Shown piece after piece: positions 21,186 to 59,428 of a DNA stretch of 62,237 bases (position 1 is its first letter; every line of letters starts with the position of its first letter). The position numbers and the translations under genes are program-made. This DNA comes from Alistipes sp. (GTDB lineage: Bacteria; Bacteroidota; Bacteroidia; Bacteroidales; Rikenellaceae). The notes under the pieces are model-generated. The model was not told the DNA's origin. It made no database searches and saw nothing but the letters and a program-made list of their open reading frames with translations. Location of the stretch: NCBI GenBank assembly GCA_017646785.1, contig JAGCLX010000077.1:1-62237 (forward strand), in the 5' to 3' direction.

Positions 21186-21202
21186 ATATAAAATTTTTTT
21201 TT

Positions 21203-21314
21203 GTCAGAAGGCTGCAGATACAACGCTCAACAAAATACCATCGATGGGTAGTACTTAGCGTACGGCCCATTGATGACATTCTCTGCTAGTGGCTGTAGAT
21301 GTCTGTCTTACAAT
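21203..21314 (+). repeat. Structured repeat, copy A (diverged)
   Basis: About 112 bp, the first of two tandem copies with a period of 123 bp. It opens with GTCAGA and holds the core hairpin GATGGG..GTAC(n)CGTAC..CCCATTGAT. Compared with copy B its 3' arm is diverged (GACATTCTCTGCTAG, and ACAA in place of TATCAC), so it no longer folds end to end. See copies B, C and D. Confidence 0.75.
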
Positions 21315-21325
21315 AAAAATTTCTT

Positions 21326-21438
21326 GTCAGAAGGCTGCAGATACAACGCTCAACAAAAATACCATCGATAGGTAGTACTTAGCGTACGGCCCATTGATGG
21401 TAGTTTTTGTTAGCGGCAGTAGATGTCTGCCTTATCAC
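21326..21438 (+). repeat. Structured repeat, copy B (intact)
   Basis: A 113-bp element from GTCAGA to TATCAC. The ends pair (GTCAGAAGGC with GCCTTATCAC) with a fixed C-C and G-A mismatch at positions 3 and 5. Inner stems are AACAAAAA/TTTTTGTT, TACCATCGAT/ATTGATGGTA, and a GTAC...GTAC tip. Its TATCAC end is 13 bases from the stop codon of the histone H1-like gene on the minus strand. No protein is encoded. Confidence 0.8.
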
Positions 21439-21451
21439 AAGAAATAATAAC

Positions 21452-21625
21452 TTATTTTGAAGCCTCTACAGATACCTTGCGGAACTCCTTAAGAAGCTTT
21501 GTAAGCTCCAAAGCTGCCTTACGAGCGCGTGTGCCTGCTGCCTTGTTATTCTTCTCAACCTGAGCGTTTGCGTTCTCTGCAAATGCTGCATACTGAGCTG
21601 CGATGTTCTCTACCAATGTCTTCAT
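21452..21625 (-). CDS. Histone H1-like (Hc1 family) small nucleoid protein
   Basis: A 57-residue protein starting MKTLVENIAAQYAAFAEN and containing KNNKAAGTRARKAALEL and KLLKEFRKVSVEASK. These blocks match the Bacteroidetes histone H1-like (Hc1) family: short, Lys/Arg/Ala-rich, helical, and thought to bind DNA. The full length is present, with an ATG, a TAA stop and a canonical promoter upstream, 33 bases from the start. It is easily overlooked because it is short. It stands alone between the metal operon and feoAB, with structured repeats A and B just past its stop codon. Confidence 0.9.
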   Translation of the reverse strand: MKTLVENIAAQYAAFAENANAQVEKNNKAAGTRARKAALELTKLLKEFRKVSVEASK

Positions 21626-48693: not shown

Positions 48694-48715
48694 TAAGTCA
48701 TTACCCAATAAAGAA

Positions 48716-48756
48716 AGCCGTCAACAGTCTGTACTCAGTACATTCCGTTGACGGCT
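48716..48756 (-). terminator. Terminator of the ribosomal protein operon
   Basis: A perfect 10-bp stem (AGCCGTCAAC / GTTGACGGCT) with an inner GTAC-TCA-GTAC hairpin. On the minus strand it is followed by TTTCTTTATT. It lies 31 bases past the tsf stop codon. Confidence 0.8.
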
Positions 48757-48787
48757 TATCGTTAGCAGCAAGCTGCCCTATAGCTTA

Positions 48788-51836: not shown

Positions 51837-51907
51837 TAGTAGAGAATTTAGGGAAATTAGGGAGGTTAGGGAATTTAGAGTTTTCTCCCTAAACTCCCTA
51901 AACTACT
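51837..51907. terminator. Long TTAGGG-rich hairpin
   Basis: TAGTAG, TTTAGGGA and TTAGGGA on the left arm (51837-51861) pair with the right arm TCCCTAAACTCCCTAAACTACTA (about 51885-51907). The left arm and loop carry three TTAGGG words spaced about 10 bases apart. It lies past the Na/Pi gene and repeat C, and before the rplM promoter, so it probably insulates the two transcripts. Nothing else is evident in 51746-51836. Confidence 0.55.
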
Positions 51908-51928
51908 ACCCCCACAACCCAATTTGTT

Positions 51929-52040
51929 GTCAGAGTGGTACTAATGTGGCGCTGACACGAAAAAATGGCGGATGGGACATACTAAAACGTATTTCCCATT
52001 CGCCATTTTGACTGAAGCGTCGCAGTAGCGCCGCTATCAC
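51929..52040 (+). repeat. Structured repeat, copy C (intact)
   Basis: A 112-bp element from GTCAGA to TATCAC. About 25 terminal base pairs carry the same C-C and G-A mismatches at positions 3 and 5 as copies B and D. The inner stem AAAATGGCGGATGGGA / TCCCATTCGCCATTTT (one G-T) is capped by ATAC...GTAT. It ends 6 bases from the stop codon of the Na/Pi cotransporter gene on the minus strand. Confidence 0.85.
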
Positions 52041-52046
52041 AACAAA

Positions 52047-53759
52047 TTACTTGTCGAGGGCCTGTGAGATATTGATAATAAAATCACCCATGCGCTCGAT
52101 CTCCGACACGGTGTCGAGGTAGTAGACGCTCGACTGGTAGTTAGAGCCGTCGGTCTCTATCTTGCGAATCTCCTCCTCGCGGATGTTATTACGCAGGTCG
52201 TTAATCTCAATCTCGCAGTCGGTAGCCATGCGCAAGCCGAGTGGTTCGAAATGCTCCGCCTTAAGGTTGTCAATCATGATGCCGTAAGCCTTATCCACCG
52301 CCACGAGCATAGTCTCAATCTTAGCCTTCTGCTCATCAGCAAACACCTTACCATGGCTATTGCGACGCGCAAGGATGCGGCTGATGCTCTCACCTGAGTC
52401 ACCCAAGCTCTCAAGCTCACCGATAATCTTGTACATGCGCTTTGTCTCTGTGCGTGTATCCTCCGAGATACTATCCTCGGGAAGTGCGTTAAGGAACTGC
52501 GCAATCTCGTACTCGATGCGGTCCGAAATCTCCTCATACTTAACAAGGCGCTGGCGTGCCTCCTCAAACTCCTTATCGCTCTTTGCGTTGATAGCCTTAC
52601 GGATGAAGTCTACACCGCGGCGTGAGATCTCGGCAAAGTGAACGACCTCGTTGCGTGCCTGACCGATAGCGAGCTCGGCAGTTGAGAGGTGACCCGCATC
52701 GATGAACTTGAGCTTCACGGTATCCTCCTCAGCACCCTTCTTATCCTTAATCATAGCGGTCACAGTCTTAACAATCACAGGCACAAACCATACAAGGATA
52801 CATGTATTAAACACATTAAAAAGCGTGTGGAGCATAGATACACCGTAGAGCGATGCCATCTCCTCATCAGTAGTCATAGCTAAATCTGCCGAGTGTACAA
52901 TATCCATAGGATTAGGGAGTCCCATCCATGTGATTGTCAAACCAACAAGCTTGAGGAATGGTGTAAAGAGCGCGAGTGCCCAGATCACACCAAAGACATT
53001 GAACAACGTGTGAGCCATAGCTGCGCGACGTGCATTGGCATTAGCAACTGCGGCAGCGATGTTTGCAGTGATTGTAGTACCGATATTCTCACCAAGCACC
53101 ATCGCAGCACCCATCTCAAAGGGTATCCACCCCATATTTACCATAATAAGCGTGAGTGCCATGGTTGCCGATGACGACTGCAACACGAGGGTCAGCACCG
53201 TGCCAAGCAACAAGAAGATGAGCACCGAACCAAAGCCATAGCTTGTCCAGTTCTGGATGAATGCGAGCACCTCGGGCGTCTCACGCAAATCGGGCACTGC
53301 ACCCTTCATCAACGACAAACCAAGGAAGAGGAGCGAGAAGCCTATGATAAGCTCACTGATGTGGCGACGGCGGTCACTCTTAGAAAGGCTAAGAATGAAA
53401 CCTACGGCCATAAGTGGCACTGCAAAGAGCGAGATATCGGCCTTGAAGCCAAGGAGTGACACCATCCATGCTGTAACCGTAGTACCGATGTTAGCACCCA
53501 TAATCACACCAACAGCCTGTGAAAGTGTCAATAGGCCAGCATTTACAAAACCTACAGTCATAACAGTTGTTGCTGATGATGATTGGATGACCGTTGTGAT
53601 ACCCAAGCCCGTCATCACGCCCTTAAATGGATTAGAGGTCATTGCCGTAAGGAAGCCACGCATTTTGCTACCCGCCGCCTTTTGTAGGCCACCGCTCATA
53701 AGGTTCATTCCATAGAGGAACATACCCAGAGCACCAAGAAGTGTTAAAATACTCATCAT
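52047..53759 (-). CDS. Na/Pi cotransporter family protein with PhoU-like domain
   Basis: A 570-residue protein. The N-terminal 340 residues hold two inverted repeats of the Na/Pi-cotransporter type, each with a QSSSAT motif (TTVIQSSSATTVMTVGF and TLVLQSSSATMALTLI) and GANIGTT/GENIGTT. The C-terminal 200 residues are helical and PhoU-like (VVHFAEISRRGVDFIRKAI, IGELESLGDSGESISRIL). Members export or import phosphate with sodium; the PhoU part suggests control by phosphate state. Structured repeat C lies just past its stop codon. Confidence 0.93.
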   Translation of the reverse strand: MMSILTLLGALGMFLYGMNLMSGGLQKAAGSKMRGFLTAMTSNPFKGVMTGLGITTVIQSSSATTVMTVGFVNAGLLTLSQAVGVIMGANIGTTVTAWMVSLLGFKADISLFAVPLMAVGFILSLSKSDRRRHISELIIGFSLLFLGLSLMKGAVPDLRETPEVLAFIQNWTSYGFGSVLIFLLLGTVLTLVLQSSSATMALTLIMVNMGWIPFEMGAAMVLGENIGTTITANIAAAVANANARRAAMAHTLFNVFGVIWALALFTPFLKLVGLTITWMGLPNPMDIVHSADLAMTTDEEMASLYGVSMLHTLFNVFNTCILVWFVPVIVKTVTAMIKDKKGAEEDTVKLKFIDAGHLSTAELAIGQARNEVVHFAEISRRGVDFIRKAINAKSDKEFEEARQRLVKYEEISDRIEYEIAQFLNALPEDSISEDTRTETKRMYKIIGELESLGDSGESISRILARRNSHGKVFADEQKAKIETMLVAVDKAYGIMIDNLKAEHFEPLGLRMATDCEIEINDLRNNIREEEIRKIETDGSNYQSSVYYLDTVSEIERMGDFIINISQALDK

Positions 53760-53795
53760 ATAGTATAAAAATTAGTTAATTCATCTTTTCGACCA

Positions 53796-53826
53796 CAAAT
53801 GTAGTACGCACAAAAATTTCTTGCAA
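53796..53826 (-). promoter_or_regulatory. Promoter of the Na/Pi cotransporter gene
   Basis: On the minus strand: TTGC (53826-53823), a 19-base spacer and TACATTTG (53803-53796), 36 bases upstream of the ATG. Confidence 0.65.
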
Positions 53827-53942
53827 TAGGAGCAATAAAATGTAACAAAACTTTAACATTACTGAAAAGAGTTTGTTACCAAACCACACGCCAAGCACGG
53901 CTATTTGTGATTGGTTATATAATATATGGTATACGATACAAA

Positions 53943-53974
53943 TTTGTGCATGTCACATATTTTGACTATCTTTG
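53943..53974 (+). promoter_or_regulatory. Promoter of the Bax inhibitor-like gene
   Basis: TTTG (53943-53946), a 20-base spacer and TATCTTTG (53967-53974), 55 bases upstream of the ATG at 54030. Confidence 0.75.
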
Positions 53975-54029
53975 TCGAGTATACAATAATGATAGCACTA
54001 AAACGTTAACAATAAAAAAACAAAATAGT

Positions 54030-54728
54030 ATGACAAATTACACAACTACTGGGGCTGGCACACAGTCGATGGTATCGGCGCTCTTCAAGAGCCTCTATAT
54101 GCAGATGGCGGCAGCCCTCACCTTGACAGGTCTTACCGCCTATTTCACATCACAGTCACAGGCATTTTGGGCCACACTTGCCACAAATCCATCACTATTA
54201 TGGATATTGCTCATCGCACAAATTGGCTTGGTCATTTGGCTCTCTGCACGCGTTATGAGAATGTCTATAGGCATGGCAATAATACTCTTTATTGCCTACT
54301 CCGTGCTTACGGGCATCACCCTGTCATCTATCTTCTTGGTCTATGACATGGGCACCATCTCCACAACGTTCTTCGTAACAGCGGGCACATTCCTAACGAT
54401 GAGCATTGTGGGTTACACCACACGCATGGACCTTTCGCGCATTGGTAACCTACTCCTCATGTTGCTCATCGGCGTTATCATCGCTACGATTGTCAATATC
54501 TTCGTTGCCTCATCAACACTCTACTGGGTAATCACCTATGTGGGTGTTATAGTCTTCGTTGGACTTATTGCATGGGATACACAGAAGCTACGCACACTCT
54601 TTTTGGAGTATGGCTCCGCAGATGAAGGTGGCCAGCGCTTAGCACTCCTCGGTGCTCTGACCCTCTACCTCGACTTCATAAATCTCTTCCTCCACCTCCT
54701 ACGCATATTTGGCGGTAACAGAGATTAA
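54030..54728 (+). CDS. Bax inhibitor-1/YccA family membrane protein
   Basis: A 232-residue inner-membrane protein with seven hydrophobic segments. The first cytoplasmic part ends MVSALFKSLYMQMAAALTLTGLTAYF, later come LTGITLSSIFLVYDMGTI and the family end FVGLIAWDTQKLRTLFLEY and ALTLYLDFINLFLHLLRIFGGNRD. Bacterial members such as BsYetJ leak calcium in a pH-dependent way, and YccA modulates FtsH. The ATG at 54030 fits both the promoter and the family N terminus; the in-frame ATG at 53907 precedes the promoter. Confidence 0.93.
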   Translation: MTNYTTTGAGTQSMVSALFKSLYMQMAAALTLTGLTAYFTSQSQAFWATLATNPSLLWILLIAQIGLVIWLSARVMRMSIGMAIILFIAYSVLTGITLSSIFLVYDMGTISTTFFVTAGTFLTMSIVGYTTRMDLSRIGNLLLMLLIGVIIATIVNIFVASSTLYWVITYVGVIVFVGLIAWDTQKLRTLFLEYGSADEGGQRLALLGALTLYLDFINLFLHLLRIFGGNRD

Positions 54729-54749
54729 TCTCAAATATACATAACACAC

Positions 54750-54781
54750 AAAAGGCTGTTCCAATTGTGGAACAGCCTTTT
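54750..54781. terminator. Bidirectional terminator
   Basis: A 13-bp perfect stem (AAAAGGCTGTTCC / GGAACAGCCTTTT) with a 6-base loop and T residues on both sides. It ends the Bax inhibitor-like gene and, on the other strand, tRNA-Arg. Confidence 0.88.
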
Positions 54782-54804
54782 ATTTTCACTCATACATCAC
54801 AATG

Positions 54805-54876
54805 TAGCCCCTCCGAGACTCGAACTCGGATCTAAGGTTTAGGAAACCTTCGTTCTATCCCTTGAACTAAAGAGCC
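54805..54876 (-). tRNA. tRNA-Arg (anticodon CCU)
   Basis: The minus strand folds as a cloverleaf: acceptor GGCTCTT with AGGGGCT (three wobble pairs), D stem GTTC/GAAC, anticodon stem AAGGT/ACCTT with loop TTCCTAA (anticodon CCT), T stem CCGAG/CTCGG with TTCGAGT, and discriminator A. CCA is not encoded. The U-G pairs in the acceptor stem resemble those of other tRNA-Arg(CCU). Confidence 0.92.
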
Positions 54877-54886
54877 AAACAGATTG

Positions 54887-54917
54887 CAAATATAGCGAAT
54901 AAATTGATACAATCAAA
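54887..54917 (-). promoter_or_regulatory. Promoter of tRNA-Arg
   Basis: On the minus strand: TTTG (54917-54914), a 19-base spacer and TATATTTG (54894-54887), 10 bases upstream of the tRNA. The remaining gap up to 55103 is AT-rich with nothing recognised. Confidence 0.75.
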
Positions 54918-55103
54918 GAGGATGGTTAAAAATCTACTCTTTGGGTATGCGAAATATGGTAGCATGATAGGTCTATTTTACTTGCAGAATAGTTTTTTGC
55001 CGAAAAATTCATACATCATAACCGCATAAACACCTAATTGACAGCACATAGCAAATAATATATTCTAAAATTAATATTTCTGCAATAAGAAAATCGGTTG
55101 AAT

Positions 55104-55135
55104 TTTGCAAAGGTGACAAAATTTTATTATATTTG
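55104..55135 (+). promoter_or_regulatory. Promoter of the acyl-CoA synthetase gene
   Basis: TTTG (55104-55107), a 20-base spacer and TATATTTG (55128-55135), 44 bases before the ATG. Confidence 0.75.
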
Positions 55136-55179
55136 TAGTCGCAAAATAGTGAAGAGTATAATTCCAAAACATAATAAAT

Positions 55180-56880
55180 ATGCTGGAACAGAATCTTATT
55201 AAGCTCTATGAGCAGAGCTTCCGCGACAACCGCGAGATGTCAGCTTTGACAGACTACTTCAAGGGTGAGTCATTCTCATACTACGAGGTTGCTAAGGAGG
55301 TGGCAAAGCTACACCTCATGTTCAAGGAGGCAGGCATTGAAAAGGGTGATAAAATTGCACTCATCGGTCGTAACAACACTCGCTGGTGCATAAGCTATAT
55401 CGCTACAATCACATATGGTGCAGTCATCGTGCCCATTCTTCAGGACTTCAACCCCAACGATGTGATTAACATCATCAACCACTCGGAAAGTAAGATGCTC
55501 TTCCTGGGTGACAACTTCTGGGATGATATCGAGGGCGACCAGATTCCTGCCATCAAGGCTGTCTTCTCGCTCACCGACTTCCATGTTATCCACGAGAAGG
55601 GAGGCGACAAGCTCACCAACTACATGAAGAACATGACCCAGAACTACCGCGAGGCATATCCACGCGGATTTAGCATAGACGACATCAAGTATTCTGACAT
55701 ACCTAACGATGCTGTGTGCTTGCTAAACTACACATCGGGTACTACTGGTTCATCAAAGGGCGTTATGCTTACCGTAAACAATCTTACTGGTAATGTCATC
55801 TTCGCTAAGAACATGAAGAACCCCGACACAGGTGACTACTACTTCCGCAAGGGCTCACGCACATTGTCGTTCTTGCCTTTGGCACACGCTTATGGATGTA
55901 CATTCGACTTCTTGTCACCCCTCGCATGCGGCGGTCACATCACCCTACTCGGCCGTATTCCTTCGCCAAAGATTCTTGTAGAGGCTATGAAGGTTACTCG
56001 CCCCACAACAGTGTGCTCAGTGCCCCTCATCCTCGAGAAGGTATACCGCAAGAGCATCCTTCCTATGTTGGAGCAGGGCCCAATGAGTATCGCTATGCGT
56101 ATTCCATTGCTTAACACAGCCATCTACTCTACCATCAAGTCGCGTCTTATGGAGCAGTTCGGTGGTTGCATCGAGATTTTCATCGTGGGTGGCGCTGCAC
56201 TCAACCAGGAGACTGAGAACTTCTTGCGTAAGATTAAGTTCCCAATCACTGTGGGCTACGGCATGACAGAGTGCGCACCTCTCATCAGCTTCGAGTTGCC
56301 TCAGTACTTTAAGTTAGGCTCATGTGGCCGTGTCCTCGAGGGACTTTTGGAGCCTCGCATCGACTCACGCGATCCCCAGAATATCCCTGGCGAGCTCTTA
56401 ATTCGTGGTGAGCACGTCATGGCTGGTTACTACAAGAATGATAGCGCCACAAAGGCTGTGTTGGATGAGGATGGATGGTTGCATACGGGCGACATGTGTA
56501 CCATGGATAGCGACAGAACGCTCTACATACGTGGTCGTTGCAAGACTATGATCCTCTCAGGCTCTGGCCAGAACATCTACCCCGAGGAGATTGAGGAGCG
56601 CTTGAATAACCTTTATATGGTTGCTGAGTCGTTGGTTATCGAGAACAATGGCCGCCTCACAGCTTTGGTTGTTCCCGACTACGAGTTGGCAAATGCCGAG
56701 GGCGTAGCATTGGATAACCTACAGGAGATTATGGATGAGAACCTCAAGCAGCTCAACACTATGGTTGCATCGTATGAGAAGGTTGCAAACATCGTAATCC
56801 ACCGCGAGGAGTTCGTTAAGACACCTAAGCGTAGCATCAAGCGTTATCTATATAGCGCTGAGCGCCTCAACCTCAACTAA
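55180..56880 (+). CDS. AMP-dependent synthetase/long-chain acyl-CoA ligase
   Basis: A 566-residue adenylate-forming enzyme with the AMP signature YTSGTTGSSKGVMLT (about residues 186-200), VGYGMTECAPLISFE, the hinge region GWLHTGDMCTMDSDRTLYIRGR, and the catalytic Lys region TPKRSIKRYLY near the C terminus. It activates a fatty acid with ATP and CoA. The exact chain length is not known. Codon use is fairly biased, suggesting good expression. A strong terminator follows. Confidence 0.9.
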   Translation: MLEQNLIKLYEQSFRDNREMSALTDYFKGESFSYYEVAKEVAKLHLMFKEAGIEKGDKIALIGRNNTRWCISYIATITYGAVIVPILQDFNPNDVINIINHSESKMLFLGDNFWDDIEGDQIPAIKAVFSLTDFHVIHEKGGDKLTNYMKNMTQNYREAYPRGFSIDDIKYSDIPNDAVCLLNYTSGTTGSSKGVMLTVNNLTGNVIFAKNMKNPDTGDYYFRKGSRTLSFLPLAHAYGCTFDFLSPLACGGHITLLGRIPSPKILVEAMKVTRPTTVCSVPLILEKVYRKSILPMLEQGPMSIAMRIPLLNTAIYSTIKSRLMEQFGGCIEIFIVGGAALNQETENFLRKIKFPITVGYGMTECAPLISFELPQYFKLGSCGRVLEGLLEPRIDSRDPQNIPGELLIRGEHVMAGYYKNDSATKAVLDEDGWLHTGDMCTMDSDRTLYIRGRCKTMILSGSGQNIYPEEIEERLNNLYMVAESLVIENNGRLTALVVPDYELANAEGVALDNLQEIMDENLKQLNTMVASYEKVANIVIHREEFVKTPKRSIKRYLYSAERLNLN

Positions 56881-56899
56881 TTGAGAGGCATATAAAAAA

Positions 56900-56933
56900 C
56901 AATAACGCCCACTCGTGTGAGTGGGCGTTATTG
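56900..56933. terminator. Strong bidirectional terminator
   Basis: A 15-bp perfect stem (56900-56914 with 56919-56933) with a GTGT loop, followed by TTTTAT on the plus strand. It separates the acyl-CoA ligase gene from the convergent membrane protein gene. Confidence 0.9.
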
Positions 56934-56952
56934 TTTTATGCGGGCAAAGATG

Positions 56953-57579
56953 TTAATCCTCGCGCACTACATGACCGCCGTCAACCTTCTTCCAACGATC
57001 ACCCTTATCATCTACATAGGTATCATAGCTTGTCTCCTTAAGCTTGCGCTCAAAGCCACTCTCATCGGTAATAGTAGCATCGTACTCCTCCTCTTTTGAC
57101 GAAGAACGTGAAGAACGTGAAGAGCTACCACCAAGCATCGCCAATATAACCTTTAGAGCTACCCACAAGCATACAAACAAAAGTGTGATAACACTACCCA
57201 AAACGCCACCGATGAAGCCCAACAAGCAGGCTACCAACATGAAGAGTGAACGCCATATACAACGGCTCAATTTTGCCTCCACGGAGAATGCTCTATAGAA
57301 ACATACAGAGATAGTCAAGAAGAGGAGATATGGGATGATGTGACAAACGATACCCCATGAGCTAAAGCCCAAATCGAATGGGTTGTCGCTACATACCATA
57401 GAGTATATAGATACCACAAAGCCAAGTATAGCACCGAGGCAGATAGATATGTATAGACACACATTACCCATAGGCACATAACTACCATTATCAAATAGTT
57501 TAGCATCGATAGACTTATATTTCTTAATAAAGAAGTATAGAGCGACAATCGCCAATATCGCTATTATAATCTGAACCAT
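56953..57579 (-). CDS. Membrane protein of unknown function
   Basis: A 208-residue protein with four hydrophobic segments (about 1-18, 38-62, 76-96 and 108-146), a Ser/Arg linker (GGSSSRSSRSSSKEEE), and a C-terminal soluble part that looks like a short beta motif (YDATITDESGFERKLKETSYDTYVDDKGDRWKKVDGG). No family is recognised. It shares the strand with the 73-residue membrane protein gene 109 bases upstream and may be co-transcribed with it. Confidence 0.7.
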   Translation of the reverse strand: MVQIIIAILAIVALYFFIKKYKSIDAKLFDNGSYVPMGNVCLYISICLGAILGFVVSIYSMVCSDNPFDLGFSSWGIVCHIIPYLLFLTISVCFYRAFSVEAKLSRCIWRSLFMLVACLLGFIGGVLGSVITLLFVCLWVALKVILAMLGGSSSRSSRSSSKEEEYDATITDESGFERKLKETSYDTYVDDKGDRWKKVDGGHVVRED

Positions 57580-57688
57580 AATTATTCTGTTTACTTAATT
57601 AATCCAACACTACCGCTCAACATAGTCTACATGATTAGACGATGCGAGCAATCACTTAATAAATAGGGTTAGCCGTACAACATTTTTA

Positions 57689-57910
57689 CTATTCAGCCCA
57701 ACCCTCATTTGCCATTTCCTCATAATCCTCATCGGTGATATAGTCCATAGTCTCGTAGAAAACCTCCTCCTCGACAATATCGCTATTCTCCGACGACACA
57801 TACTGTCTTCCAATGACAAAGAAATAGACAAGCGATAGAATTAGAAAACAACAGCTCGCAGCGATTAAGCCCTTGGCCGTTGGCGATAACTTTGATTTAG
57901 TCTGTTCCAT
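57689..57910 (-). CDS. Small single-pass membrane protein with acidic tail
   Basis: A 73-residue protein: cytoplasmic start MEQTKSKLSPTAKG, one membrane helix (about 15-33, LIAASCCFLILSLVYFFVI), and an outer tail with many Glu and Asp (DIVEEEVFYETMDY, TDEDYEEM). A canonical promoter lies 34 bases upstream, which supports a real gene. Function is unknown. Confidence 0.65.
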   Translation of the reverse strand: MEQTKSKLSPTAKGLIAASCCFLILSLVYFFVIGRQYVSSENSDIVEEEVFYETMDYITDEDYEEMANEGWAE

Positions 57911-57944
57911 ATAAATTTAATTTAGTTAGTAGTCTATTGGTAGA

Positions 57945-57976
57945 CAAATTTACGAAATAAAAGTAAACAAAACAAA
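57945..57976 (-). promoter_or_regulatory. Promoter of the 73-residue membrane protein gene
   Basis: On the minus strand: TTTG (57976-57973), a 20-base spacer and TAAATTTG (57952-57945). Confidence 0.7.
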
Positions 57977-58007
57977 TTTTAATGCTGACTTATCACGCGA
58001 ATGTCGC

Positions 58008-58117
58008 GTCAGAGTGGTGTAGATGTGGCACTGATACGAAAAATGGCGGATGGGACATACTTGACGTATTTCCCATTCGCCATTTTGACTGAAGTGTCGC
58101 AGATGCGCCACTATCAC
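58008..58117 (+). repeat. Structured repeat, copy D (intact)
   Basis: A 110-bp element from GTCAGA to TATCAC, closely related to copy C. Compared with C, the outer stem has compensatory changes (T-A at 51942/52027 is A-T at 58021/58104; G-C at 51951/52018 is A-T at 58030/58095), while the C-C and G-A mismatches near the ends are kept. It ends 6 bases from the der stop codon on the minus strand. Confidence 0.85.
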
Positions 58118-58123
58118 GCAAAA

Positions 58124-59428
58124 TTACTTTTGGCGGAAATATATCTGAATAGGCACTCCCGAGAAGTCCCACTGCTCACGAAGCTTGTTCTCAAGGAAGC
58201 GACGGTACGACTCCTTGATATACTGTGGCAAGTTCACAAAGAAGGCGAACTGTGGCGTTGGCGTTGGGAGCTGCGTCACATACTTGATTTTGATATATTT
58301 GCCCTTTGTTGCTGCAGGAGGATAGTTCTCAATGAGAGGCAAGAAGAAGTCGTTGAGCTCTGAGGTAGAGATACGACGCTTACGTGACTCATATACGCGG
58401 ATTGCTGCCTGGAGCACATCGAGAATACGCTGCTTGTTGATTACCGATGTGAAGATGATTGGAATATCGCTGAATGGAGCGAGCTTCTTCTCGAGGAACT
58501 CACGCCACACCTTCATGGTGTTGCTATCCTTCTCCACGAGGTCCCACTTGTTAACTACAATCACACAGCCCTTGCGGTTACGCACGATGAGGTTGTGGAT
58601 GTTCAAGTCCTGTGACTCGATACCCTGCTCCGCGTCGAGCATAAGCACACAGACATCAGAGTTCTCGATAGCACGAATGGAGCGCATAACAGAGTAGAAC
58701 TCAAGGTCCTCGGTCACCTTACCCTTCTTACGCATGCCGGCGGTATCGACGAGATAGAAGTCCATGCCGTACATATTGTAGCGAGTGTGGATGGAGTCGC
58801 GCGTTGTACCCGCAACGTTGGTCACGATATTACGCTCGGTGCCCAGAAGTGCGTTAGTCATTGACGACTTACCCACATTAGGACGACCCACGATTGTGAT
58901 ACGTGGGAGCGAAGCATCGTACTCAGCAGATGTATCCTCAGGGAGGTTAGCAAGGATGGCATCCATCATATCACCAGTACCGCTACCCGACATTGAGCTG
59001 ATGCAGAAAGGCTCACCAAGGCCCAAGGCATGGAACTCGTGTGAGTAGTAGATAAGGTCGTATGTGTCAACCTTATTACATACGAGCATCACCTTCTTAC
59101 CCGAACGACGAAGGATATCGGCCATCATCATATCGAGGTCGGTGATACCTGTGCGCACCTCAACGAGGAAGAGGATGAGGTCTGCCTCCTCGATTGCGAG
59201 CATCACCTGACGGCGAATCTCGTCCTCGAAGATATCCTCAGAGTTTACGGTGTAACCACCTGTGTCGATTACAGAAAACTCCTTACCATTCCAGTCAGTC
59301 TTACCATAGTGACGGTCACGTGTTGTACCAGCCGTCTCATCGACGATAGCCTGACGCTGACCCACAAGGCGATTAAAAAGTGTTGACTTACCCACATTAG
59401 GGCGACCTACGATTGCAACAAGACTCAT
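58124..59428 (-). CDS. der: Ribosome biogenesis GTPase Der (EngA)
   Basis: Der is an essential double GTPase that helps assemble the 50S subunit. The 434-residue protein has two G domains: [16 protein letters not shown] and NKVD in the first (residues about 8-160), and [16 protein letters not shown] and NKWD in the second (about 175-350). A KH-like C-terminal domain follows. Its length is typical. Structured repeat D lies just past its stop codon. Confidence 0.97.

What the first reader, a model, noticed from the sequence alone, without database searches (positions are those of the whole stretch)
51929..58117. Covarying 110-112 bp hairpin repeats (copies C and D)
Copies C (51929-52040) and D (58008-58117) lie 6 kb apart. 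Each folds from end to end into one long hairpin. Where they differ in the outer stem, at least two positions change on both arms: T-A to A-T (51942/52027 against 58021/58104) and G-C to A-T (51951/52018 against 58030/58095). The inner stem AAAATGGCGGATGGGA is kept almost unchanged. Two mismatches near the ends (C-C at position 3, G-A at position 5) are the same in both. Conserved mismatches plus compensatory changes point to selection on a specific folded RNA or DNA, such as a REP/MITE-like mobile hairpin or a structured RNA.
Basis: seen in the sequence. Interest (0 to 1): 0.75.

Follow-up and report, generated by a model that had tools for sequence, protein, structure and literature searches.

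The report
Swapped hairpins at gene stop codons
In Alistipes-type gut bacteria a large family of 126-base DNA hairpins sits at the stop codons of genes, where it seems to stand in for the usual transcription stop signal, and although genes often keep their hairpin site for a long time, the hairpin in it is often replaced by a different version.

Summary
C and D belong to a family of ~126-nt hairpins ("HP1"). The window holds four (C, D, tandem A/B), all on the minus strand; the nearest available genome (G001, an Alistipes MAG) has 144 in 1.75 Mb. Stem changes are compensated far beyond controls (20 of 35 pairs in 38 copies), G-U pairs are rare on the mRNA strand, and some mismatches are fixed, so the pairing looks DNA-like rather than selected in mRNA. 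HP1 is not scattered: of 115 loci, 89 begin within -12..+9 nt of the stop codon of a same-strand gene; in 62 the element's first two bases complete that codon. HP1 genes mostly lack canonical terminators (6/84 versus 144/547), tend to lie at transcript ends, and HP1 has a GC-rich inner hairpin followed by a U-rich tract. Seats are inherited (20/27 orthologous genes occupied; background 84/1293), but the subtype usually differs (16 of 20), and the tip loop varies even between copies with identical arms. No RAYT, reverse transcriptase or integron integrase tracks the family. Best reading: a Rikenellaceae-specific 3'-end palindrome acting as transcript end, whose seats persist while occupants are exchanged. 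Termination and the exchange mechanism are inferred.

The parts
51921..52048 (-). HP1 copy C, directly after the stop codon of the Na/Pi-cotransporter + PhoU gene
   Evidence: (139.1 bits)
52047..52049 (-). TAA stop codon of the gene 52047-53759(-); its AA are the first two bases of copy C
58000..58127 (-). HP1 copy D, directly after the stop codon of der (EngA)
   Evidence: (130.5 bits, 58000-58125)
58124..58126 (-). TAA stop codon of der (58124-59428, minus strand)
21318..21446 (-). HP1 copy B, stop-proximal copy of a tandem pair, about 5 nt after the stop of a 57-aa Hc1 histone-like gene (21452-21625, minus)
   Evidence: (98.2 bits)
21197..21317 (-). HP1 copy A, second copy of the tandem pair
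   Evidence: 56.1 bits
51903..51920 (-). linker-like sequence after copy C (GGGTTGTGG...), resembling the start of the linker that follows many HP1 arrays in G001
   Evidence: by eye (the strict linker pattern did not match in the window)
51840..51904 (-). second, low-complexity palindrome (HP2) of ~9-nt units (TTTAGGGAG.../CTCCCTAAA)
48706..48787 (-). HP1-like remnant after tsf (EF-Ts): left-arm-like pieces and an apical hairpin (GTAC TGA GTAC) followed by a T-rich tail; the G001 orthologue carries a full HP1 here. Not found by model R1 nor called by the terminator scan
   Evidence: by eye
57975..57999 (-). possible remnant of a second copy behind D (..CGCGTGATAAGTCAG..)
   Evidence: by eye only

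Best explanation
HP1 is a lineage-specific 126-nt imperfect DNA palindrome that forms the 3' end of genes. It begins at the stop codon (usually the gene's T plus the element's AA give TAA; the element also carries TGA-TAA/TAG in a second frame) and replaces the ordinary intrinsic terminator: its GC-rich inner hairpin followed by a U-rich tract would end the transcript about 90-100 nt after the stop. The gene keeps its 'seat' through speciation, but the occupant is repeatedly exchanged for another subtype, probably by a new copy inserting next to the resident (tandem arrays) followed by loss of one copy or fusion at the tip (chimeric arms). Shown: copy number, covariation, stop-codon position and orientation, relative scarcity of canonical terminators, inherited seats with changed subtype, tandem arrays of unlike subtypes, tip-to-tip chimeras, hypervariable tip loop. 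Inferred: that it terminates transcription, the insertion-then-loss route, and that the recognised form is folded DNA.
For: Position: upstream gene on the same strand in 98 of 115 loci (11 opposite, 6 none called); stop-to-element distance -2 in 62 of these 98 and -12..+9 in 89 of 98; the junction reads TAA in 79 of 115 loci. In other genomes 33 of 38 loci have an ORF stop within -16..+20 of an element end, either orientation allowed. Terminator replacement: canonical terminators within 150 nt in 144/547 other genes, 6/84 HP1 genes after the array, 2/84 within 150 nt of the stop; 0/300 coding, 1/547 shuffled (Fisher p=4.7e-5 for 6/84); among convergent pairs 72/227 versus 3/40 (p=0.001). Several unoccupied orthologues show an ordinary hairpin + T-tract there (by eye). 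Transcript ends: next gene convergent in 36/84 versus 339/1292 (p=0.0015). T-rich columns after the inner stem (T 50-93% in 8 of the columns 97-106). Seats: 20/27 G169/G151 genes occupied in G001 (background 84/1293). Exchange: 16 of those 20 are below about 0.90 arm identity; at 8 further shared sites the orthologous copy is never the best match, though at two of them (L137, L149) it is within 0.01. Tandem neighbours: 29 junctions, identity median 0.64, maximum 0.76, like random pairs. Chimeras: about 7-8 of 142 by inspection. Loop: 15 of 18 pairs with identical arms differ in the loop.
Against: No transcript data were available, so termination is not shown. The U-tract score is moderate and nearly as high on the other strand (mean 2.27 sense, 1.88 antisense; median 1.95 versus 2.23; background mean 0.67), and the consensus terminator scan called neither C, D nor the tsf remnant. 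G-U pairs are rare on the mRNA strand and A-C mismatches commoner (39 versus 176 over 35 pairs, mostly in about nine positions, some perhaps misaligned), which an RNA terminator does not explain; A-C here is G-T on the other strand, so a fold of that strand is not excluded. 403 of 547 other genes also lack a terminator by my strict finder, so scarcity is relative. The seats tested in G151/G169 were high-scoring copies, which favours young or conserved subtypes, and 13 of the 40 loci dropped out for lack of a called gene or a full orthologue. Of 23 window genes with a usable G001 orthologue, G001 is occupied only at tsf, and the C and D seats are empty in G001. No clean empty site between close relatives was found, so the insertion step was never seen.
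Confidence: 0.55

Rival explanations
1. Selfish REP/MITE-like element: an unidentified enzyme inserts HP1 at stop codons; terminators are lost because the insertion separates or destroys them, and HP1 has no host function.
For: Very variable presence between related genomes (19 of 41 in the genus sample; 36 of 150 in the family sample); tandem arrays with only 0, 1, 3 or 4 nt between copies; arms without a difference at unrelated genes and across species (9 of 40 copies); the C and D seats are empty in G001.
Against: Seats are shared far above background (20/27 and 8/25 versus 84/1293) while the content differs; no candidate enzyme correlates.
Confidence: 0.25
2. RNA-level element: HP1 is a 3'-UTR hairpin that protects mRNA from exonucleases or stalls terminating ribosomes, as described for E. 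coli REPs within 15 nt of a stop codon.
For: Fixed orientation and position at the stop codon; E. coli REPs within 15 nt of a stop are reported to stall ribosomes (PMC12306157, passages).
Against: No G-U excess over A-C on the mRNA strand (8 versus 9 cells among 2464 in the best-paired positions; 39 versus 176 over all pairs), which would be expected if the RNA fold were selected on that strand.
Confidence: 0.1
3. A known hairpin-using mobility system (RAYT/IS200-type HUH transposase, integron integrase with attC sites, or a reverse transcriptase) moves HP1.
For: Imperfect hairpin with fixed mismatches next to a stop codon resembles REP and attC anatomy (attC recalled, from no call).
Against: Y1_Tnp 0 of 40 genomes, integron integrase over cut-off 0 of 33, RVT_1 in 10 of 33 and absent from G001 and 12 of the 16 other element-rich genomes.
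Confidence: 0.05
4. Protein-binding DNA site (gyrase, nucleoid or uptake signal) that happens to sit at transcript ends.
For: Strong Watson-Crick pairing and conserved mismatches; precedent of uptake sequences used as terminators in Neisseria and Pasteurellaceae (PMC1852404, passages).
Against: Does not by itself explain exact abutment to the stop codon or the scarcity of terminators.
Confidence: 0.05

Closest known systems
GTAG/CGTC REPs, BIMEs and REPINs (RAYT-associated repeats)
   Same: High-copy intergenic palindromes; [quoted passage not shown] clustered and dimer arrangements; alternative complementary stem residues (PMC3733652, passages).
   Different: [quoted passage not shown] HP1 is ~126 nt, begins at TAA in most loci, shows few G-U pairs on the mRNA strand, and has no Y1 transposase in 40 genomes.
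ERIC (127-bp enterobacterial repeats)
   Same: Similar length, one long stem-loop, intergenic and multi-copy (PMC2267715, passages).
   Different: No sequence comparison was run; the stop-codon register, nested interchangeable modules and hypervariable tip found here are not in the ERIC passages I saw.
Uptake-sequence terminators of Neisseria/Pasteurellaceae
   Same: A repeated, sequence-conserved DNA motif doing duty as intrinsic terminator (PMC1852404, passages).
   Different: Those are pairs of about 9-11-nt signals; HP1 is one 126-nt unit with many subtypes and no known uptake role.
Palindromic structured-RNA candidates of human microbiomes (HMP2_4205, HMP2_1032, HMP2_4078 and others)
   Same: Bacteroidetes palindromes of 106-132 bp; 230 of 250 palindromic candidates predicted to form terminators (PMC8040213, passages).
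   Different: Whether any is HP1 could not be checked (their sequences are in supplements, not available here); no stop-codon register or seat exchange in the passages seen.
TnpAREP subclass 2.6 of Bacteroidetes
   Same: Bacteroidetes, with atypical secondary structures that recur in the genome (PMC6006769, passages).
   Different: Defined by a Y1 transposase gene, not found here.

Membership tests
REP/RAYT repeats | Y1 (HUH) transposase in the genome | tested here: not met
   PF01797 in 0 of 40 genomes, 23 of them with HP1 matches; E. coli and 4 other control genomes ring
REP/RAYT repeats | 20-40 bp unit with GTAG or CGTC tag at the foot | tested here: not met
   unit is ~126 nt; commonest ends AATTTsTTG/CAAsAAATT
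REP/RAYT repeats | high-copy, intergenic, palindromic | tested here: met
   144 elements in 1.75 Mb
MITE | terminal inverted repeats and target-site duplication, clean empty sites | tested here: inconclusive
   inverted ends present; several outer-end variants are inverted, not direct (by eye); empty orthologues gave no alignable clean site
MITE | autonomous parent transposon with the same ends | not tested
   no systematic search for an IS with these ends was run
Integron attC site | integron integrase (IntI) | tested here: not met
   TIGR02249 over cut-off in 0 of 33 genomes; but 0 of the 14 control genomes pass it either, so the search has no positive control
Retron/group II intron/DGR product | reverse transcriptase in the carrier genome | tested here: not met
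   RVT_1 absent in G001 (a MAG, may be incomplete) and in 12 of 16 other rich genomes
Intrinsic terminator | GC-rich hairpin followed by a U-tract downstream of a stop codon | tested here: inconclusive
   GC-rich inner stem plus T-rich columns, but imperfect stem and not called by the scan
Intrinsic terminator | RNA 3' ends at the site | not testable with these tools
   no RNA data
Known Rfam family | match above gathering score | tested here: not met
   window at gathering: three tRNAs only; copy C and flank at E up to 10: 13 weak hits, all below gathering

The most novel reading that the evidence does not exclude
An unknown recombination process in Rikenellaceae keeps hairpin 'seats' at gene 3' ends and swaps their occupants: a copy is inserted beside the resident at a TAA/AATT junction, the pair collapses end-to-end or tip-to-tip, and the tip is remade with errors each time (hypervariable loop). 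This would be a self-renewing, exchangeable terminator system working on folded DNA, without any known transposase.
Probability: 0.3. Interest if true: 0.78.

Novelty: new variant of a known kind. Interest (0 to 1): 0.62.

Why it matters
It would show that the 3' ends of about one gene in fifteen (84 of 1293 counted in G001) in a gut lineage are supplied by a repeat family rather than by gene-specific terminators, and that such ends evolve by exchange of whole hairpins. The loop pattern (arms identical, tip different) gives a direct handle on how DNA hairpins are copied or repaired in living cells, and cultured Alistipes could test it by RNA 3'-end mapping.

Tried and rejected
RAYT/HUH partner: 0 of 40 genomes (G001 alone). 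Reverse transcriptase: 10 of 33 (4 of 17 HP1-rich, 6 of 16 without DNA matches), no link with copy number. Integron integrase: weak matches in 33 of 33 and in 14 of 14 controls, 0 over cut-off anywhere. Tip cleavage by SbcCD as source of loop variation and conversion: SbcD over cut-off in 0 of 33 genomes (8 of 14 controls), so I dropped it as the driver; the lack may instead let long palindromes persist. Target-site duplication of TA or AATT: variant ends are inverted complements, so they seem to belong to the hairpin (by eye). Phage or plasmid carriage: no match in 50,697 phage and 72,556 plasmid records (copy C alone as query). Rfam: nothing. Tandem duplication as origin of arrays: neighbours are as unlike as random pairs. 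Literature: the listings showed no paper that I could tie to this family; of each list only the papers shown were seen, and six papers were opened, as passages only. The larger alignment A2 mixes both strands of the palindromes; I rely on A1 and on the strand-filtered part of A2, which holds 112 distinct of the 144 elements. My outer-stem complementarity measure is crude, and the chimera count is by inspection of its low tail. Gene calls in G001 are simple longest-ORF calls; some spurious ORFs enter the distances (5th percentile -176 nt).
Full report
What is there. Copies C (51921-52048) and D (about 58000-58127) are two of four members in the window of a hairpin family, which I call HP1; the others are the tandem pair A/B at 21197-21446. 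All four lie on the minus strand, each single copy or pair after the stop codon of a minus-strand gene: a Na/Pi cotransporter with a PhoU domain (C), der/EngA (D) and a 57-aa Hc1 histone-like gene (A/B). The window's own genome is not held. The closest Der protein in the genome collection (98% identical) is from an Alistipes MAG, RGIG4198, handled here as G001; der is 86% identical in nucleotides between the two.

How many and where. A covariance model of 38 copies (alignment A1, model R1) finds 273 rows on both strands in 1,749,260 bases of G001. After taking the better strand, and leaving out one element cut in two at a fragment edge, I counted 144 elements in 115 loci: 89 single, 23 double, 3 triple, head to tail. 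G001 is listed as 2.0 Mb, so a part was not examined. In a genus sample 19 of 41 genomes have DNA matches; in a family sample 36 of 150 have model matches, with at most 23 places scored per genome; in a sample of the order 2 of 247, one of them G001 (stricter filters). The family name Rikenellaceae is inferred from record titles and recalled taxonomy. Copy C had no match in the phage and plasmid collections nor in Rfam.

The fold. In A1, 95.6% of pair cells form, against 80.5% in shuffles and 40-49% when partners are slid; 20 of 35 pairs show changes on both sides, in 203 cells against 71 in shuffles. In 112 distinct strand-filtered G001 copies, 26 of 35 pairs show Watson-Crick to Watson-Crick double changes. 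In the 22 best-paired positions there are 2429 Watson-Crick cells, 8 G-U, 9 A-C and 18 others; over all 35 pairs 3634, 39, 176 and 71. If the mRNA fold were what is selected, G-U should exceed A-C; it does not. The A-C cells are concentrated in about nine positions and partly reflect subtypes that may be misaligned, but A-C on this strand is G-T on the other, so a fold of the opposite strand is not excluded. A G.G mismatch near the foot is present in 103 of 112 copies and a C.A mismatch in 92 of 112. Outer and inner parts of the stem are combined in many ways: two outer types occur with five and six of the seven named inner types.

Register with stop codons. In G001 the upstream gene is on the same strand in 98 of 115 loci, opposite in 11, not called in 6. 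In 62 of the 98 the stop codon ends two bases inside the element; in 9 it ends 12 bases inside, at the place of the element's own TGA; 89 of 98 lie within -12..+9. The junction (one external base plus the first two element bases) reads TAA in 79 of 115 loci, and the base before the element is T in 87 of 115. Loci of other genomes agree: 33 of 38 have an ORF stop within -16..+20 of an element end, either orientation allowed and the longest ORF taken. HP1 genes use TAA in 70 of 84 cases, others in 757 of 1209 (p=8.5e-5).

Relation to terminators. With a strict finder, canonical terminators occur within 150 nt of the stop in 144 of 547 other genes with a downstream gap of at least 60 nt, but in 6 of 84 HP1 genes within 150 nt after the array (8 of 84 within 300 nt) and 2 of 84 within 150 nt of the stop; controls are 0 of 300 coding and 1 of 547 shuffled stretches (p=4.7e-5). 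HP1 genes more often face a convergent neighbour (36/84 versus 339/1292), and their same-strand neighbours are further away (median 181 nt after the array versus 23 nt after the stop). Several unoccupied orthologues show an ordinary hairpin with T-tract near the stop (G001 der; G001 cotransporter gene; several; by eye). HP1 itself has a GC-rich inner stem followed by T-rich columns on the mRNA strand; the opposite strand is also T-rich, and the consensus scan does not call it. The window's tsf gene ends in a terminator-like remnant that keeps the HP1 apex motif, while the G001 orthologue has a full HP1; this is by eye, and neither model R1 nor the scan reports it.

Seats and occupants. Of 33 genes next to HP1 in other genomes, 25 had a usable G001 orthologue and 8 of these are occupied in G001, or 9 with a degenerate copy. 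For 40 loci fetched from G151 and G169 (high-scoring copies), 27 had a full-length orthologue and 20 of these are occupied: 13 of 15 for G169 and 7 of 12 for G151; median gene identity 90.7% (distance window +-45 nt). Background is 84 of 1293 genes (window -16..+20; p=8e-18). Only 4 of the 20 have arms about 0.90 or more identical. At 8 shared sites from other species the orthologous copy is never the best match; its rank runs from second to 118th of 144, and in two cases it is within 0.01 of the best. Yet 9 of the 40 copies have arms with no difference from some G001 copy. Against this, of 23 window genes with a usable G001 orthologue only tsf is occupied in G001, and the seats of C and D are empty there. 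The der site is occupied, by different subtypes, in the window and, of 29 loci from 28 further genomes, in full in G050, G160, G182, G048, G022, G163 and G181, partial or displaced in G151 and G035, and empty or not readable in the rest (by eye). I read this as inherited seats with exchanged content and some loss.

Traces of the exchange. In 29 tandem junctions 0, 1, 3 or 4 nt lie between copies, and neighbours are as unlike as random pairs (median 0.64 versus 0.66, maximum 0.76), so arrays come from joining different copies, or like neighbours are lost quickly. About 7-8 of 142 copies have arms from two subtypes joined at the tip (by inspection). Among 93 copy pairs with at most 3 arm differences, arms differ at 1.3% of sites (bounded by the selection) but same-length loops at 39.5%, and 29 pairs differ in loop length; of 18 pairs with identical arms 15 differ in the loop. 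There are 65 distinct loops in 142 copies, not fully random (GCCAA 19 times). The pairs are not independent.

What could do it. Y1 transposase 0 of 40, integron integrase 0 of 33 over cut-off but without a positive control, reverse transcriptase 10 of 33 without relation to copy number, SbcD 0 of 33 over cut-off. Many of these genomes are likely MAGs, so absence in one is weak; absence in all is stronger. The enzyme remains unknown.

Comparison. The nearest kinds are REPs, ERIC and uptake-sequence terminators (passages only). HP1 works like a 3'-end repeat but fails the defining tests of REP/RAYT repeats. Some palindromic Bacteroidetes candidates in PMC8040213 have similar length (passages); whether they are HP1 could not be checked. 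I found no paper on this family in the listings. I rate it a new variant of a known kind.

Noticed in passing
L111-L130 and L202-L281 (G001), after HP1 arrays; window 51840-51920: HP1 arrays are commonly followed by a linker (about GGGTCGTGCTGGCTGGAAGG) and then a second, low-complexity palindrome of ~9-nt units in at least five flavours (TTAGGGAG.., AAGACCATTAGG.., GAGTTAAAATG.., CAGGGAGATTT.., GAGGGGTCTGAGGGG..).
   Followed up: partly
L001 7700-7800 (= L280 in G001): The linker occurs without HP1 after der in G001, preceded only by GAAATT; the few other high-scoring linker matches without a called HP1 close by mostly had what look like HP1 remnants before them.
   Followed up: partly
33 genomes of the genus/family samples: No SbcD over the family cut-off (0 of 33; 8 of 14 control genomes pass), so these bacteria may lack the SbcCD palindrome nuclease.
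   Followed up: no
G146 contig C5 (3.79 Mb): A 3.79-Mb contig also carries the family (18 matches) with different outer ends (L155); possibly a cultured organism fit for tests.
   Followed up: no
L229, L214, L261 (G001): Some copies are preceded by a repeat of their own first 9-12 bases (for example TAATTTCTTGTG|AATTTCTTGTGATAAG), perhaps a scar of insertion into an older copy.
   Followed up: no
strand-filtered A2, 9 positions: A-C mismatches on the mRNA strand (176) outnumber G-U (39), i.e. the opposite strand holds more G-T pairs; cause not resolved.
   Followed up: partly
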